Shown here: positions 2,476 to 35,356 of the stretch, one piece after another | Layout of the letters: every line of letters begins with the position of its first letter | Numbering within the stretch: position 1 is the stretch's first letter | Assembly: GCF_000270245.1 (NCBI RefSeq) | Contig: NC_015635.1 | Coordinates: 2,790,001 to 2,854,000, forward strand | DNA length: 64,000 bases | From: Microlunatus phosphovorus NM-1 | Lineage (GTDB): Bacteria > Actinomycetota > Actinomycetes > Propionibacteriales > Propionibacteriaceae | Direction of reading: 5' to 3' | Made by a program: the position numbers and the translations under genes | Notes under the pieces: model-generated | Told to the model about the DNA's origin: nothing | The model's input: the letters and a program-made list of their open reading frames with translations, nothing else | Database searches by the model: none

Positions 2476-2511
2476 GTCGCGAGCGGCCGCTGGAGCGCAG
2501 TGAGTGATGAC
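2476..2511 (-). repeat. Shortened copy of the 131-bp hairpin element
   Basis: On the minus strand this 36-bp segment begins GTCATCACTCACTGCGCTCC and ends GGCCGCTCGCGAC, matching both ends of the 131-bp element (compare 6948-7078) with the middle deleted. It lies 8 bp past the stop codon of the aldo/keto reductase, and the arsR promoter follows it. Confidence 0.6.
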
Positions 2512-6947: not shown

Positions 6948-7078
6948 GTCGTCACTCACTGTGCGGCTGCGCTCCCAGGACTCCGTCTTCCCTTCTCGCT
7001 CGCAAGACGAAGAACATGTCTTGCTCCCTCGTCGGTCCAGACGGAGCCCTCGCTCCGCCTCACGGCCGCTCGCGACGG
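6948..7078 (+). repeat. 131-bp hairpin element, single diverged copy
   Basis: This unit matches the three tandem units at 21887-22279 along its whole 131 bp, including CTCCGTCT paired with AGACGGAG and the ends GTCGTCACTC and GGCCGCTCGCGACGG. The central stem here is GCAAGAC/GTCTTGC, whereas the tandem copies have GCAAAC/GTTTGC, so pairing is kept while the bases change. It separates the convergent GH3 and P450 genes and supplies the last codons and the stop of the P450. Confidence 0.85.
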
Positions 7079-18878: not shown

Positions 18879-18916
18879 GTCGTCACTCGCTCTGCAGCGG
18901 AGCCGCTCGCGACGGG
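18879..18916 (+). repeat. Shortened copy of the 131-bp hairpin element
   Basis: GTCGTCACTCGC at the left and CCGCTCGCGACGGG at the right are the two ends of the 131-bp element with about 95 bp of middle removed. It lies 23 bp past the tyrA stop and just before the cmk promoter. Confidence 0.6.
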
Positions 18917-20807: not shown

Positions 20808-21643
20808 AGCAGCGGCGCTCCTGGTCCGTCGGGCCGCCGCATCCGGGCGGCGATGACCTGATCCACGATCGCTGCGACCGCGTCGTCGCTCGCCCGGGTC
20901 ACCCCGTCTGCGGTCGCGGTCATCACGATCGGGAAGATCCGCCGGGTGAGATCGGGGCCGCCCGTGGCCGAGTCGTCATCGGAGGCGTCGTACAGCGCCT
21001 GGATCACGGCGGTGGCGGCCTCGGTCGCCGTCAGATCGGGCCGATAGAGCTTCTTCAGCGAGCCGCGAGCGAACACCGAGCCGGAGCCCACCGAGAAGAA
21101 GGCCTGCTCCTCGTAGCGTCCGCCGGTGGCGTCGTAGGAGAAGATCCGGCCTTCCTGCCGCGCCAGATCCCAGCCGGCGAACAGCGGCACCACGACGAAG
21201 CCCTGCAAGGCCATGCCCAGGTTCTGCCGGATCATGGTGGCAAGCCGATTCGCCTTGCCGACCAGCGACAGCGGGGCACCTTCGATCTTCTCGTAGTGCT
21301 CGAGTTCCAGCTGGAACAGCCGCACCATCTCCACGGCCAGACCGGCCGAGCCGGCGATCCCGATGATCGAGTACTCGTCGGCCGGGTAGACCTTCTCGAT
21401 ATCGCGCTGGGCGATCATGTTGCCCATCGTGGCTCGCCGGTCGCCGGCGACGACCACACCGCCGGGAAAGGTCGCGGCGACGATCGTCGTGCCGTGCGGC
21501 GCCAGATCAGCCACCGAGGCACCAGGGCTCTCGGCGCGGGCCCCGGGCAGCACGTTCGGCGCGACGGCCGCAGCGAAGTCGGTGAAGGAGGACGTGCCGG
21601 CCTGCAGGAAGGCCGGCGGCAGCGCGGTCAGTCGTTCGGTCAC
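20804..21643 (-). CDS. prcB: Proteasome subunit beta (catalytic)
   Basis: A 279-residue precursor of the catalytic beta subunit. A 51-residue propeptide ends in APHG, and cleavage exposes Thr52 of [27 protein letters not shown], the N-terminal nucleophile; Asp and Lys partners are in AGDRR and the following strand. It degrades pupylated proteins inside the 20S chamber capped by ARC/Mpa. GTG start overlaps the pup stop by four bases. Confidence 0.97.
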
Positions 21644-21834
21644 TGCCCGCCCTTCTGCACGAACGACCGCACGAACTCCTCGGCGTTGTTCTCCAGCACC
21701 GAGTCGATCTCGTCCAGCAGCGAGTCGACGTCTGCGTCGAGCTCGGCCTTGTGGGCGCTGTCGGCCGGTGCCAGTTCCTCGGCGGCCTCGGTCTCTGTGT
21801 GCCGGGACCTGCTCTTGTGTTCTGACTCAGGCAT
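21640..21834 (-). CDS. pup: Prokaryotic ubiquitin-like protein Pup
   Basis: A 64-residue, highly acidic, disordered protein. The C-terminal half [25 protein letters not shown] is the Pup signature; it ends in GGQ, so Dop must deamidate the final Gln to Glu before conjugation to lysines. The start was set at ATG 21834, which has a strong AGGAGG site and gives the standard Pup length; the frame is open 20 codons further up but without support. A TAGGCT -10 lies 38 bp upstream, just after the hairpin array, so pup-prcBA can be transcribed without dop. Confidence 0.97.
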
Positions 21835-21871
21835 CTGTGCACCTCCTACACCTTGGGCTGATGTCATGACC

Positions 21872-21877
21872 AGCCTA
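21872..21877 (-). promoter_or_regulatory. -10 element for pup-prcB-prcA
   Basis: Minus-strand TAGGCT lies between the three hairpin copies and pup, leaving a leader of about 30 bases that contains the AGGAGG site. It would give the pup-prcBA group its own promoter separate from dop. Confidence 0.45.
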
Positions 21878-21886
21878 TCCGTGTCA

Positions 21887-22279
21887 GTCGTCACTCGCGG
21901 TGAGGCCGCGCTCCCAAGACTCCGTCTTCGCTCCTCGTTCGCAAACGGAAGAACGTGTTTGCTCTCTCGTCGCTCCAGACGGAGCCCTCGCTCCGCCTCA
22001 CGGCCGCTCGCGGTGTGGTCGTCGCTCGCGGTGAGGCCGCGCTCCCAAGACTCCGTCTTCGCTCCTCGTTCGCAAACGGAAGAACGTGTTTGCTCTCTCG
22101 TCGCTCCAGACGGAGCCGTCGCTCCGCCTCACGGCCGCTCGCGGTGTGGTCGTCGCTCGCTGTGAGGCCGCGCTCCCAAGACTCCGTCTTCGCTCCTCGT
22201 TCGCAAACGGAAGAACGTGTTTGCTCTCTCGTCGCTCCAGACGGAGCCCTCGCTCCGCCTCACGGCCGCTCGCGACGGG
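21887..22279 (+). repeat. Three tandem 131-bp hairpin elements between dop and pup
   Basis: Three nearly identical units begin at 21887, 22018 and 22149, a period of exactly 131 bp. Each contains nested inverted repeats: GTGAGGC/GCCTCAC, CTCCGTCT/AGACGGAG and a central GCAAAC/GTTTGC around a ten-base loop. Unit 3 ends GCTCGCGACGGG; units 1 and 2 end GCTCGCGGTGTG. The last 20 bases of unit 3 encode the end of dop. No protein is convincingly encoded. The array lies between the dop stop and the pup promoter. Confidence 0.92.
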
Positions 22280-23822
22280 GCTCCAGGTTCTCGAACAGCG
22301 CCACGACATCATCGCTGGCGTCGATCACCGGGCCGACCTGGGCTTTGGTGCCCTTCAACGGATCCAGCAAGGGCAACCTCTGCAGGGCGGGTTTGCCGGG
22401 CACATCGAAGATCACCGAGTCCCAGGACGCGGCGACCACCGCAGGACCGTACTTCTCCATCACCCGCCCCCGGAAATAGGCCCTGGTGTCGGTGGGCGGC
22501 GCCAGCCGGGCCTGCTCGATCTCCTCGCCGGTGAGCAGCTGACGCATCCGACCCTTGCGGACCAGGGCAGCGAACAGGCTGCGCTGGGGATCCACGTCGC
22601 AATACTGCAGGTCGATCAGCGCCAGCTTCGGCGATGCCCAGCCGAGCCCGTCCCGATTGCGGTACGACTCCATCAGCTGCAGCTTCGCCACCCAGTCGAG
22701 CTGATCGGCCAGCTCCGTCGGGTCGCGGCGCAGTGTGTCGAGGACCTCCTGCCAGCGGGTGAAGATGTCCTTCGCCTCGATCCGGGCTGACTCCCCCAGC
22801 TCGCCCGCGTGCCGCTCATAGCAGGCCCGGGCCGCGTCCAGATAGACCTCTTGCAGGTCCATCGCCGTCACCCGACGGCCGTCGACCAACCGCAGCAGCT
22901 GCCGGCAGGTCGGGTCATGGCTGACGGCTCGCATGGTCATCACCGGCTGGTCGACCCGTACGGTGGGCGGCACGAGCCCGGCCTCGATCGCCCGGAGCAC
23001 CCAGGACGCCGTGCCGACCTTCAGGTAGGTGGAGATCTCCGACAGGTTCGCGTCACCGGTGATCACGTGCAGCCGTCGGTGCAAGGTGGCGTCGGCGTGC
23101 GGCTCGTCGCGGGTATTGATGATCGGCCGGTTGAGCGTAGTCTCCAGCCCCACCTCGGCCTCGAAGAAGTCGGCCCGCTGGCTGATCTGGAACCCGGGTC
23201 GCTGGCTCGCCTGGCCCAGACCGACCCGGCCGGCACCGGTGAACACCTGCCGGGAGACCAGGAAGCCGGTGAACTGGGTCACCACCCGGTCGAACGGGGT
23301 GCTGCGCTCCAGCAGATAGTTCTCGTGAGTGCCGTAGGAGGCGCCCTTGCCGTCGGTGTTGTTCTTGTAGAGGCGCACCGAGCAGCCGAGGTTGCGACTG
23401 GCCTGGGCGGCAGCGATCGCCATCACCACATCACCGGCCTTGTCGTAGCGCACCGCGTCGAGCGCGCTGGTCACCTCCGGGCCGGAATACTCCGGGTGGG
23501 CATGGTCCACATAGAGCCGGGCTCCGTTGGTCAAGATCAGATTGGCCATGCCGAGGTCGTCGTCGGTCAACTGGTCGGGGTGCGCCTGAGCGCGGTTGAT
23601 CTCGTAGCCGCGGATATCGCGCAGCGGTGTCTCGGTCTCGTAGTCCCAGCCGGCCTGCCGGGTGGTGGTCGTCCAGCCGTAGCCCTTGACGACATGGTTC
23701 GACAACTGCATCGGGTGCAGCTCTTCACCCACCGGCTGCCCGAGCGCCGAGATCCCGTACTCCGTCTCGATCCCCATCACCCGGAGGGCTGGGGGGAGTT
23801 CTGGGGACGCGAGCTGACTCAT
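22260..23822 (-). CDS. dop: Depupylase/deamidase Dop
   Basis: A 520-residue member of the Dop/PafA family of glutamine-synthetase-like enzymes. Dop rather than PafA is indicated by MGIETEYGISALGQPVGEELHPMQLSNHVV and by the region NLILTNGARLYVDHAHPEYSGPEV. It deamidates Pup and removes Pup from targets. ATG 23822 is preceded by TAGGCT and a six-base gap, pointing to a leaderless mRNA. Its last residues EPRRERP and stop codon lie in the third hairpin copy, so the original C-terminus may have been replaced. Confidence 0.95.
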   Translation of the reverse strand: MSQLASPELPPALRVMGIETEYGISALGQPVGEELHPMQLSNHVVKGYGWTTTTRQAGWDYETETPLRDIRGYEINRAQAHPDQLTDDDLGMANLILTNGARLYVDHAHPEYSGPEVTSALDAVRYDKAGDVVMAIAAAQASRNLGCSVRLYKNNTDGKGASYGTHENYLLERSTPFDRVVTQFTGFLVSRQVFTGAGRVGLGQASQRPGFQISQRADFFEAEVGLETTLNRPIINTRDEPHADATLHRRLHVITGDANLSEISTYLKVGTASWVLRAIEAGLVPPTVRVDQPVMTMRAVSHDPTCRQLLRLVDGRRVTAMDLQEVYLDAARACYERHAGELGESARIEAKDIFTRWQEVLDTLRRDPTELADQLDWVAKLQLMESYRNRDGLGWASPKLALIDLQYCDVDPQRSLFAALVRKGRMRQLLTGEEIEQARLAPPTDTRAYFRGRVMEKYGPAVVAASWDSVIFDVPGKPALQRLPLLDPLKGTKAQVGPVIDASDDVVALFENLEPRRERP

Positions 23823-35234: not shown

Positions 35235-35356
35235 GGACGCGAGCGGGAAGACGACGGGCCCGGCGTGCGGAGGAGCGATGAGTGAAGCCGACGTTCTTTC
35301 AGGCTTCACGAAGAGTGACGACGTAGCCGGTGAATGCCCGTCGTCGTCGCGAGCGG
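35235..35356 (-). repeat. Diverged relatives of the hairpin element between PAC2 and rpe ends
   Basis: GCGAGCGG at 35239-35246 and GAGTGACGAC at 35313-35322 correspond to the two ends of the 131-bp element on its reverse strand. Between them GTGAAGCC (35282-35289) and GGCTTCAC (35302-35309) form a perfect stem around GACGTTCTTTCA, the same loop core (ACGTTCTT) as in the other copies but with different stem bases. A further lone end GTCGCGAGCGG is at 35346-35356, two bases from the rpe stop codon. Confidence 0.65.

What the first reader, a model, noticed from the sequence alone, without database searches (positions are those of the whole stretch)
21887..22279. A dispersed 131-bp hairpin element, tripled between dop and pup
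Seen directly: three units with a period of exactly 131 bp (21887, 22018, 22149), a fourth full-length but diverged unit at 6948-7078, end-only derivatives at 2476-2511 and 18879-18916, and relatives at 35235-35356. Every case lies within a few bases behind a stop codon (AKR, GH3/P450, tyrA, dop, PAC2/rpe), and at dop-pup and tyrA-cmk a promoter follows immediately. This repeated placement suggests a mobile or spreading palindrome used as a transcription boundary or 3' end protector. I know of no described family with this sequence.
Basis: partly seen in the sequence, partly recalled or inferred. Interest (0 to 1): 0.78.

Follow-up and report, generated by a model that had tools for sequence, protein, structure and literature searches.

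The report
Mobile hairpin repeat with G·A helix
This actinobacterium carries about 90 copies of an apparently undescribed 131-base hairpin sequence that has spread between genes, whose purine-rich strand pairs through conserved G·A steps, and which often sits exactly beside gene ends or DNA-damage-type promoters.

Summary
The repeat is real and much larger than reported. The genome (5,683,123 bp; size recalled as Microlunatus phosphovorus NM-1) gives 88 covariance-model matches. Relatives occur in 10 of 19 other genomes of the genus and, with a broader model, in 6 genomes of another family of the order. No Rfam match was found. Stems covary strongly (22 of 24 pairs among foreign Microlunatus copies). 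The stretches between stems are not plain loops: on the purine-rich strand they align as tandem 5'-GA-3'/3'-AG-5' steps that coevolve between the two arms. Copies avoid genes, favour convergent gaps and 3' ends (37 of 55 strong clusters within 40 bp), and in 9 of 59 clusters the left end lies 5-7 bp from a PafBC/RecA-NDp-like promoter motif. Absence at orthologous sites shows gain or loss; no target duplication and no Y1 transposase were found. Best reading: a non-autonomous mobile element whose single-strand fold serves its own spread, placed by left-end target choice plus tolerance at gene ends. A transcription-boundary role is possible but untested. 'Always behind a stop codon' is only partly true.

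The parts
21887..22017 (+). unit 1 of the dop-pup array (131 bp; left end nearest pup)
   Evidence: 98% to the reference unit over 126 bp; CM match 137.6 bits
22018..22148 (+). unit 2 of the dop-pup array
   Evidence: 98% over 126 bp; CM 136.6 bits
22149..22279 (+). unit 3 of the dop-pup array; its right end supplies the last codons and the stop of dop
   Evidence: reference unit; CM 151.2 bits; dop ends ...NLEPRRERP* against ...FANLDQ* in G005
22260..22262 (-). stop codon of dop (Pup_ligase family), inside the element
   Evidence: ORF 22260..23822 -; Pfam PF03136
6948..7078 (+). single full copy between convergent GH3 and P450 genes; the P450 stop at 7060 lies inside it
   Evidence: 89%; CM 144.5 bits; genes by Pfam
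18879..18916 (+). end-only derivative between tyrA and cmk (both ends, middle missing)
   Evidence: CM E 0.005; sequence
2476..2511 (-). probable end-only derivative by the AKR gene
   Evidence: by eye only; no model match
21865..21886 (-). pup promoter region (TAGGCT, probable -10) abutting the left end of the array
   Evidence: similar hexamer upstream of pup in relatives, read by eye

Best explanation
It is a non-autonomous mobile intergenic repeat (about 131 bp, single or in tandem arrays of up to 4), so far found only in Propionibacteriales. Shown by sequence: (1) it is dispersed in about 90 copies; (2) copies are present at one species' site and absent from the orthologous place of another; (3) nested stems covary; (4) the segments between them align as coevolving tandem 5'-GA-3'/3'-AG-5' steps on the purine-rich (GAGCGA) strand only, so that strand can form an almost continuous long hairpin; (5) the left end is often placed precisely: within 15 bp of a stop codon, or 5-7 bp from a DNA-damage-type promoter motif. 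Inferred: the hairpin of the purine strand, as single-stranded DNA or RNA, is what an unidentified trans-acting machinery recognises; the left end chooses the target; copies survive where they do least harm (gene 3' ends, convergent gaps); tandem arrays arise by recombination between units. A host benefit is not needed to explain the data.
For: 88 CM matches in the genome; 55 strong clusters holding 78 near-full units and 10 partial ones, 15 of them with two or more near-full units. Covariation: own copies 9 of 24 pairs with double changes, score 0.153 against 0.089 shuffled; other Microlunatus 22 of 24, 0.456 against 0.126 shuffled and at most 0.109 when slid; second family 17 of 24, 0.432 against 0.138. 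G.A arms: own 9.33 against 6.99 swapped and -0.79 letter-shuffled, reversed order -0.86. RNA folding z is stronger on the purine strand in 5 of 5 copies. Absence at orthologous places and one shared site; the dop-pup array and the uvrA copy are present in 1 of 20 genus genomes each. Only 2 of 55 clusters overlap a called gene by more than 25 bp although 87% of the held sequence is coding.
Against: No mobilising enzyme was identified (only the Y1 family was searched); no target-site duplication (29 clusters). The terminal inverted repeat is only about 4 bp (GTCG/CGAC). One site is shared with G005 although each species has its own sequence type there, so some copies are old and may be kept for a reason. 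With DNA parameters neither strand folds consistently better. In own copies the number of further pair types is no higher than in shuffles (17 against 16.9). In co-directional gaps the purine strand is transcribed in 21 of 28 (p 0.013), which a purely selfish DNA element need not show; in 20 foreign loci the same split is 6 to 5. Single-pair wobble evidence on strand is mixed.
Confidence: 0.55

Rival explanations
1. Host-functional transcription boundary: the transcribed hairpin ends or protects mRNA 3' ends and insulates the next promoter.
For: Convergent gaps 18 of 55 against 29 of 246 control gaps (Fisher p 0.0003); co-directional copies nearer the 3' end in 20 of 28; purine strand transcribed in 21 of 28 co-directional cases; left end 0-15 bp behind a stop also in 11 of 12 such foreign loci; RNA z stronger on the purine strand in 5 of 5 copies.
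Against: No U-tract (one region only); 9 of 55 lie between divergent genes; the distances are equally well explained by tolerance of insertion at gene ends; of the three foreign loci aligned to their own counterpart (L111, L113, L122) one copy is shared; no expression data.
Confidence: 0.2
2. Structured RNA gene or cis-regulatory RNA multiplied in the genome.
For: Covariation and better RNA folding of the purine strand; conserved core TCTTCC...GTCCAGA across two families.
Against: No Rfam match; no fixed neighbour gene among the window's copies or the nine promoter-side genes; tandem arrays of near-identical units; both strands would be transcribed in convergent gaps.
Confidence: 0.1
3. REP/BIME-type element moved by a RAYT (Y1) transposase, or an IS200/IS605 derivative.
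For: Palindromic, intergenic, dispersed; genomes of the second family carry inverted pairs, as REPINs do (recalled).
Against: Y1_Tnp (PF01797) is not found in the own genome or in any of 20 genus genomes (some of them drafts), while the control rings in 5 of 14; the unit is far longer than a REP.
Confidence: 0.05
4. Local trigger of the PafBC DNA-damage response: the purine strand folds tightly while the pyrimidine strand, left with T.C mismatches, stays open as single-stranded DNA beside PafBC-type promoters.
For: 9 of 59 left ends lie 5-7 bp from a TGTCRG-N10-YANNNT motif and none at any other distance within 120 bp; the genes behind it include an exonuclease III-like nuclease, uvrA and rmuC; PafBC is activated by ssDNA, dT best, and its authors argue that genome-bound ssDNA sources would have to be local (PMC11804915, passages).
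Against: 50 of 59 clusters have no such motif there; uvrA keeps the motif in 20 of 20 genus genomes although a copy is found upstream in only 1 of 20; cruciform extrusion is not shown.
Confidence: 0.06

Closest known systems
REP / BIME / REPIN elements (RAYT-mobilised; features recalled)
   Same: dispersed extragenic palindromes, arrays and inverted pairs, many at gene 3' ends
   Different: 131 bp unit, tandem G.A helix, no Y1 transposase found in the genus, precise left end
RU-1 (127 bp), RU-2, RU-3: MITE-like enterobacterial repeats (PMC2759123, listing and start of abstract; RU-1 = ERIC is recalled)
   Same: similar length, intergenic, multiple copies; can contribute coding sequence to neighbours
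   Different: no sequence comparison made; here no target duplication, frequent tandem arrays, G.A pairing
Mycobacterial interspersed repetitive units (MIRU; recalled)
   Same: actinobacterial, intergenic, tandem arrays next to stop codons
   Different: as I recall not long covarying hairpins; no sequence comparison made
AGCGA-quadruplex-forming DNA (PMC5442326, listing and start of abstract)
   Same: AGCGA-rich strand
   Different: here antiparallel hairpin arms coevolve; four-stranded folding untested

Membership tests
REP/RAYT | cognate Y1 transposase (PF01797) in the genome or lineage | tested here: not met
   0 in the own genome, 0 of 20 genus genomes; control positive in 5 of 14
REP/RAYT | dispersed extragenic imperfect palindrome | tested here: met
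MITE | target-site duplication | tested here: not met
   longest shared word of the two flanks 4.14 against 4.11 swapped; 29 of 55 strong clusters, those with element-like sequence in the right flank set aside
MITE | terminal inverted repeats | tested here: inconclusive
   only GTCG/CGAC, 95.9% of cells paired (helix 1)
Mobile non-autonomous element in general | presence/absence at orthologous sites | tested here: met
   own 5036871 absent in G005; copies of G005 (L111) and G019 (L122) absent from the own place; dop-pup array and uvrA copy each in 1 of 20 genus genomes
Intrinsic terminator | hairpin followed by a T run | tested here: not met
   0 found in window 21500-22600; not scanned elsewhere
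Known Rfam family | covariance-model match at the gathering score | tested here: not met
   window at gathering: only a tRNA; 3 loci at E 0.5: nothing over a gathering score
MIRU | MIRU sequence | not tested
   recalled only

The most novel reading that the evidence does not exclude
The element is an asymmetric cruciform. Its purine strand folds into a G.A-zippered hairpin and thereby leaves the pyrimidine strand as local single-stranded DNA. At the promoters that it abuts, this primes the ssDNA-sensing activator PafBC, so that a mobile repeat has been recruited (or targets itself) to wire genes such as uvrA and rmuC to DNA stress.
Probability: 0.06. Interest if true: 0.92.

Novelty: new variant of a known kind. 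Interest (0 to 1): 0.7.

Why it matters
Dispersed bacterial palindromes are a known kind, but this is a structured repeat family across two families of Propionibacteriales in which non-canonical tandem G·A steps, not only Watson-Crick pairs, show pairwise coevolution. That marks which strand folds, something rarely readable from sequence. Its repeated, base-exact abutment to DNA-damage-type promoters makes a question directly testable: does the insertion machinery read that promoter, or does the promoter use the hairpin?

Tried and rejected
REP/RAYT and IS200/IS605 origin: rejected for a resident enzyme. Target duplication: none. Rfam family: none. Strand bias with replication: 14 plus and 12 minus in one half of the chromosome, 11 plus and 18 minus in the other, no clear bias; the origin was not located. 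Wobble-pair test for the folded strand: mixed (column pair 36/107 favours the minus strand in 36 of 48 copies, 14/128 favours the plus strand in 46 of 48). Folding of a 161-nt stretch with flanks was not better than shuffles (z 0.00 and -0.84); of ten unit-only RNA folds (5 copies, both strands) eight have z -1.9 or lower, and both strands of L037 are weaker (-0.04 and -1.63). DNA-parameter folds gave no consistent strand preference (purine strand stronger in 3 of 6 copies). In the foreign arms the reversed-order G·A score also beats swapping (-0.12 against -1.24), which comes from its standard pairs; its level is no better than letter shuffles (-0.39). Pattern hits outside Propionibacteriales (16 of 41 stretches: Mesorhizobium 11, five others) were taken as chance: of the 7 given to the model none matched, against 19 of 19 Propionibacteriaceae loci given. 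Paper searches showed no description of this repeat; only their listings were seen. One promoter-side gene (L094) that I read as a DNA glycosylase had no Pfam match at 1e-5.

Limits: genes come from my own hexamer-based caller trained on the fetched stretches, so gene edges are approximate, and the control gaps come from the same stretches. Copy numbers are lower bounds: 150 of 6043 first-look candidates were scored in the own genome, 59 or 11 per genome elsewhere. No genome outside the order was searched with the models, apart from the 7 pattern loci. Alignments A2, A3 and A4 were fitted to the model. My regular expression had the wrong spacing and reported nothing; the uvrA motifs were read by eye. 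The genome-wide motif count of 149 used a slightly stricter pattern.

Full report
The observation. The three units at dop-pup (21887, 22018, 22149) and the copy at 6948-7078 are there, with a period of exactly 131 bp. The window lies at 2,790,001-2,854,000 of a single-contig genome of 5,683,123 bp, a size I recall as that of Microlunatus phosphovorus NM-1. A DNA search found 72 matches; a covariance model built from 48 copies (A1) found 88 at E 0.01 or better, 150 candidates being scored. Fetched stretches round them hold 94 profile hits in 59 clusters. The 55 clusters with E below 1e-9 hold 88 hits: 78 near-full units and 10 partial ones; 15 clusters have two or more near-full units. The end-only piece at 18879-18916 is a weak match; 2476-2511 was seen only by eye; 35235-35356 was not matched.

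Structure. On own copies 9 of 24 pairs show changes on both sides, and the covariation score is 0.153 against 0.089 for shuffles; the number of further pair types is not raised (17 against 16.9). On 46 matches (41 distinct rows) from other genomes of the genus it is 22 of 24 pairs and 0.456, against 0.126 for shuffles and at most 0.109 when slid. On 20 copies from six genomes of another family it is 17 of 24 pairs and 0.432 against 0.138. The last two alignments were fitted to the model, which favours the structure; the slid controls and the many GC-to-CG exchanges argue that it is real.

The segments between the core stem and the apical stem look like internal loops, but on the minus (purine-rich, GAGCGA) strand they align as a helix of tandem 5'-GA-3'/3'-AG-5' steps separated by one or two, mostly standard or wobble, pairs. 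With a score that rewards this step, each copy's two arms fit each other (mean 9.33, 36 distinct arm pairs from 48 copies) better than arms swapped between copies (6.99, 0 of 2000 swaps as good) and far better than letter-shuffled arms (-0.79). The reverse step 5'-AG-3' gives -0.86. The 38 distinct foreign arm pairs give 9.30, against 6.36 swapped and -0.46 shuffled. So the positions of the G·A steps move between subfamilies, but both arms move together. The opposite strand has T·C mismatches there. With RNA parameters the purine strand has the stronger z-score in 5 of 5 copies (-3.28/-1.90, -3.38/-2.02, -7.65/-5.26, -5.12/-2.75, -1.63/-0.04). With DNA parameters it is stronger in 3 of 6. Whether RNA or single-stranded DNA folds in the cell is therefore open. 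Wobble counts at single pairs disagree.

Spread. With a broader model, 15 of 293 genomes of the order have matches: 9 of the genus (own included) and 6 of another family, which I infer to be Nocardioidaceae. These share the core TCTTCC...GTCCAGA, and several carry the element as inverted pairs about 40 bp apart. A core pattern over the species collection gave 41 stretches, 25 of them from Microlunatus flavus, Propionibacteriaceae bins or Friedmanniella. The model confirmed 19 of 19 of those given to it and 0 of 7 of the others.

Placement. In 55 strong clusters, oriented by the element: 21 co-directional with the purine strand transcribed, 7 co-directional the other way, 18 convergent, 9 divergent. 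Control gaps of 30 bp or more in the same stretches: 156 co-directional, 29 convergent, 61 divergent. Convergent gaps are enriched (p 0.0003); the lack of divergent gaps is not significant by count (p 0.22). Of the 55, 37 lie within 40 bp of a gene 3' end and 16 within 40 bp of a 5' end; 2 overlap a called gene by more than 25 bp, although 87% of the held sequence is coding. Of 25 clusters with a gene running into the left end, 19 have its stop between -1 and 15 bp, seven of them at -1, where the element's first G completes a TAG. In foreign loci 11 of 12 such genes stop within 0-15 bp (20 loci looked at). At four right ends a called gene ends 19-20 bp inside the element; for dop and the P450 gene this stop was checked in the sequence.

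Insertion. In G005, the closest relative (dop 85% identical), dop ends ...FANLDQ* and the dop-pup gap is 95 bp; here dop ends ...NLEPRRERP*, the tail coming from the element. The model finds the array at dop-pup in the own genome only, 1 of 20 (one weak match in G019's dop locus lies beyond pup). Own copy 5036871 is absent from the orthologous gene end in G005, and copies of G005 (L111) and G019 (L122) are absent from the own place; the intergenic flanks align poorly, so exact junctions are not fixed. One site, own 2279030, is shared with G005 (L113), including a truncated second unit, yet each species has its own sequence type in both units. That points to concerted change or to repeated events. 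Flanks show no target duplication (29 clusters). No Y1 transposase was found in the own genome or in 20 genomes of the genus; other recombinases were not searched for.

Promoters. At 9 of 59 left ends, reading outward, the motif TGTC(A/G)G-N10-(C/T)ANNNT begins 5-7 bp away, and at no other distance within 120 bp; at right ends it occurs once, 57 bp away. From the 36 motif sites in the held 502,598 bp about 0.006 would be expected there; from the 149 genome-wide matches of a stricter pattern, 0.002. One of the nine is a weak partial element (2282014). The motif agrees with the RecA-NDp/PafBC promoter as I recall it; that PafBC binds a motif like RecA-NDp was read in passages of PMC8223512, which do not give the letters. 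The genes behind it: an endonuclease/exonuclease family protein (exonuclease III-like), a zinc alcohol dehydrogenase-type protein, two glyoxalase-fold proteins, CorA, UvrA, an ATP-cone protein (NrdR-like), RmuC, and one protein without a Pfam match that I read as a DNA glycosylase. The uvrA motif is present in 20 of 20 genomes of the genus (by eye) and a copy of the element upstream of uvrA in 1 of 20, so the promoter is older than the insertion. The own genome has two adjacent WYL domains at 1,890,853-1,892,090, likely pafBC.

Interpretation. Dispersal, absence at orthologous places, arrays, end-only derivatives and a precise left end point to a mobile repeat. Pairwise selection on one strand's fold points to a single-stranded intermediate or product that something recognises. 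Preference for gene ends may come from tolerance alone. The base-exact abutment to damage-type promoters is the strongest unexplained feature: target choice is the simpler reading, a regulatory use the bolder one. A transcription-boundary function remains possible and is directly testable.

Noticed in passing
own genome 1,886,862-1,892,090: By my gene calls a copy at 1888113-1888241 lies 3 bp behind the end of a gene matching the Dop query (probably pafA) and upstream of two adjacent WYL domains (probably pafBC), so both Pup-related loci carry the element.
   Followed up: partly
window 22260-22290: The Dop protein of this species has a C-terminal tail (EPRRERP) that comes from the inserted element and is not seen in the 19 relatives looked at.
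   Followed up: partly
L223, L224, L226, L227, L228: In the second family the elements occur as inverted pairs about 40 bp apart, which could form one giant palindrome.
   Followed up: no
L113 2085 and own 2279030: At a shared site both the full unit and the truncated second unit are of the species' own type in each species, which suggests concerted change within arrays.
   Followed up: no
apex of second-family copies (e.g. L221 1501-1641): The apex often holds TCGCTGCGCTCG, on the other strand CGAGCGCAGCGA, which resembles very stable GNA-triloop mini-hairpins of DNA (recalled).
   Followed up: no
L115 3732 (G005): One of five G005 copies also abuts a TGTCGG-N10-TANNNT motif at its left end (read by eye from the flank).
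   Followed up: partly
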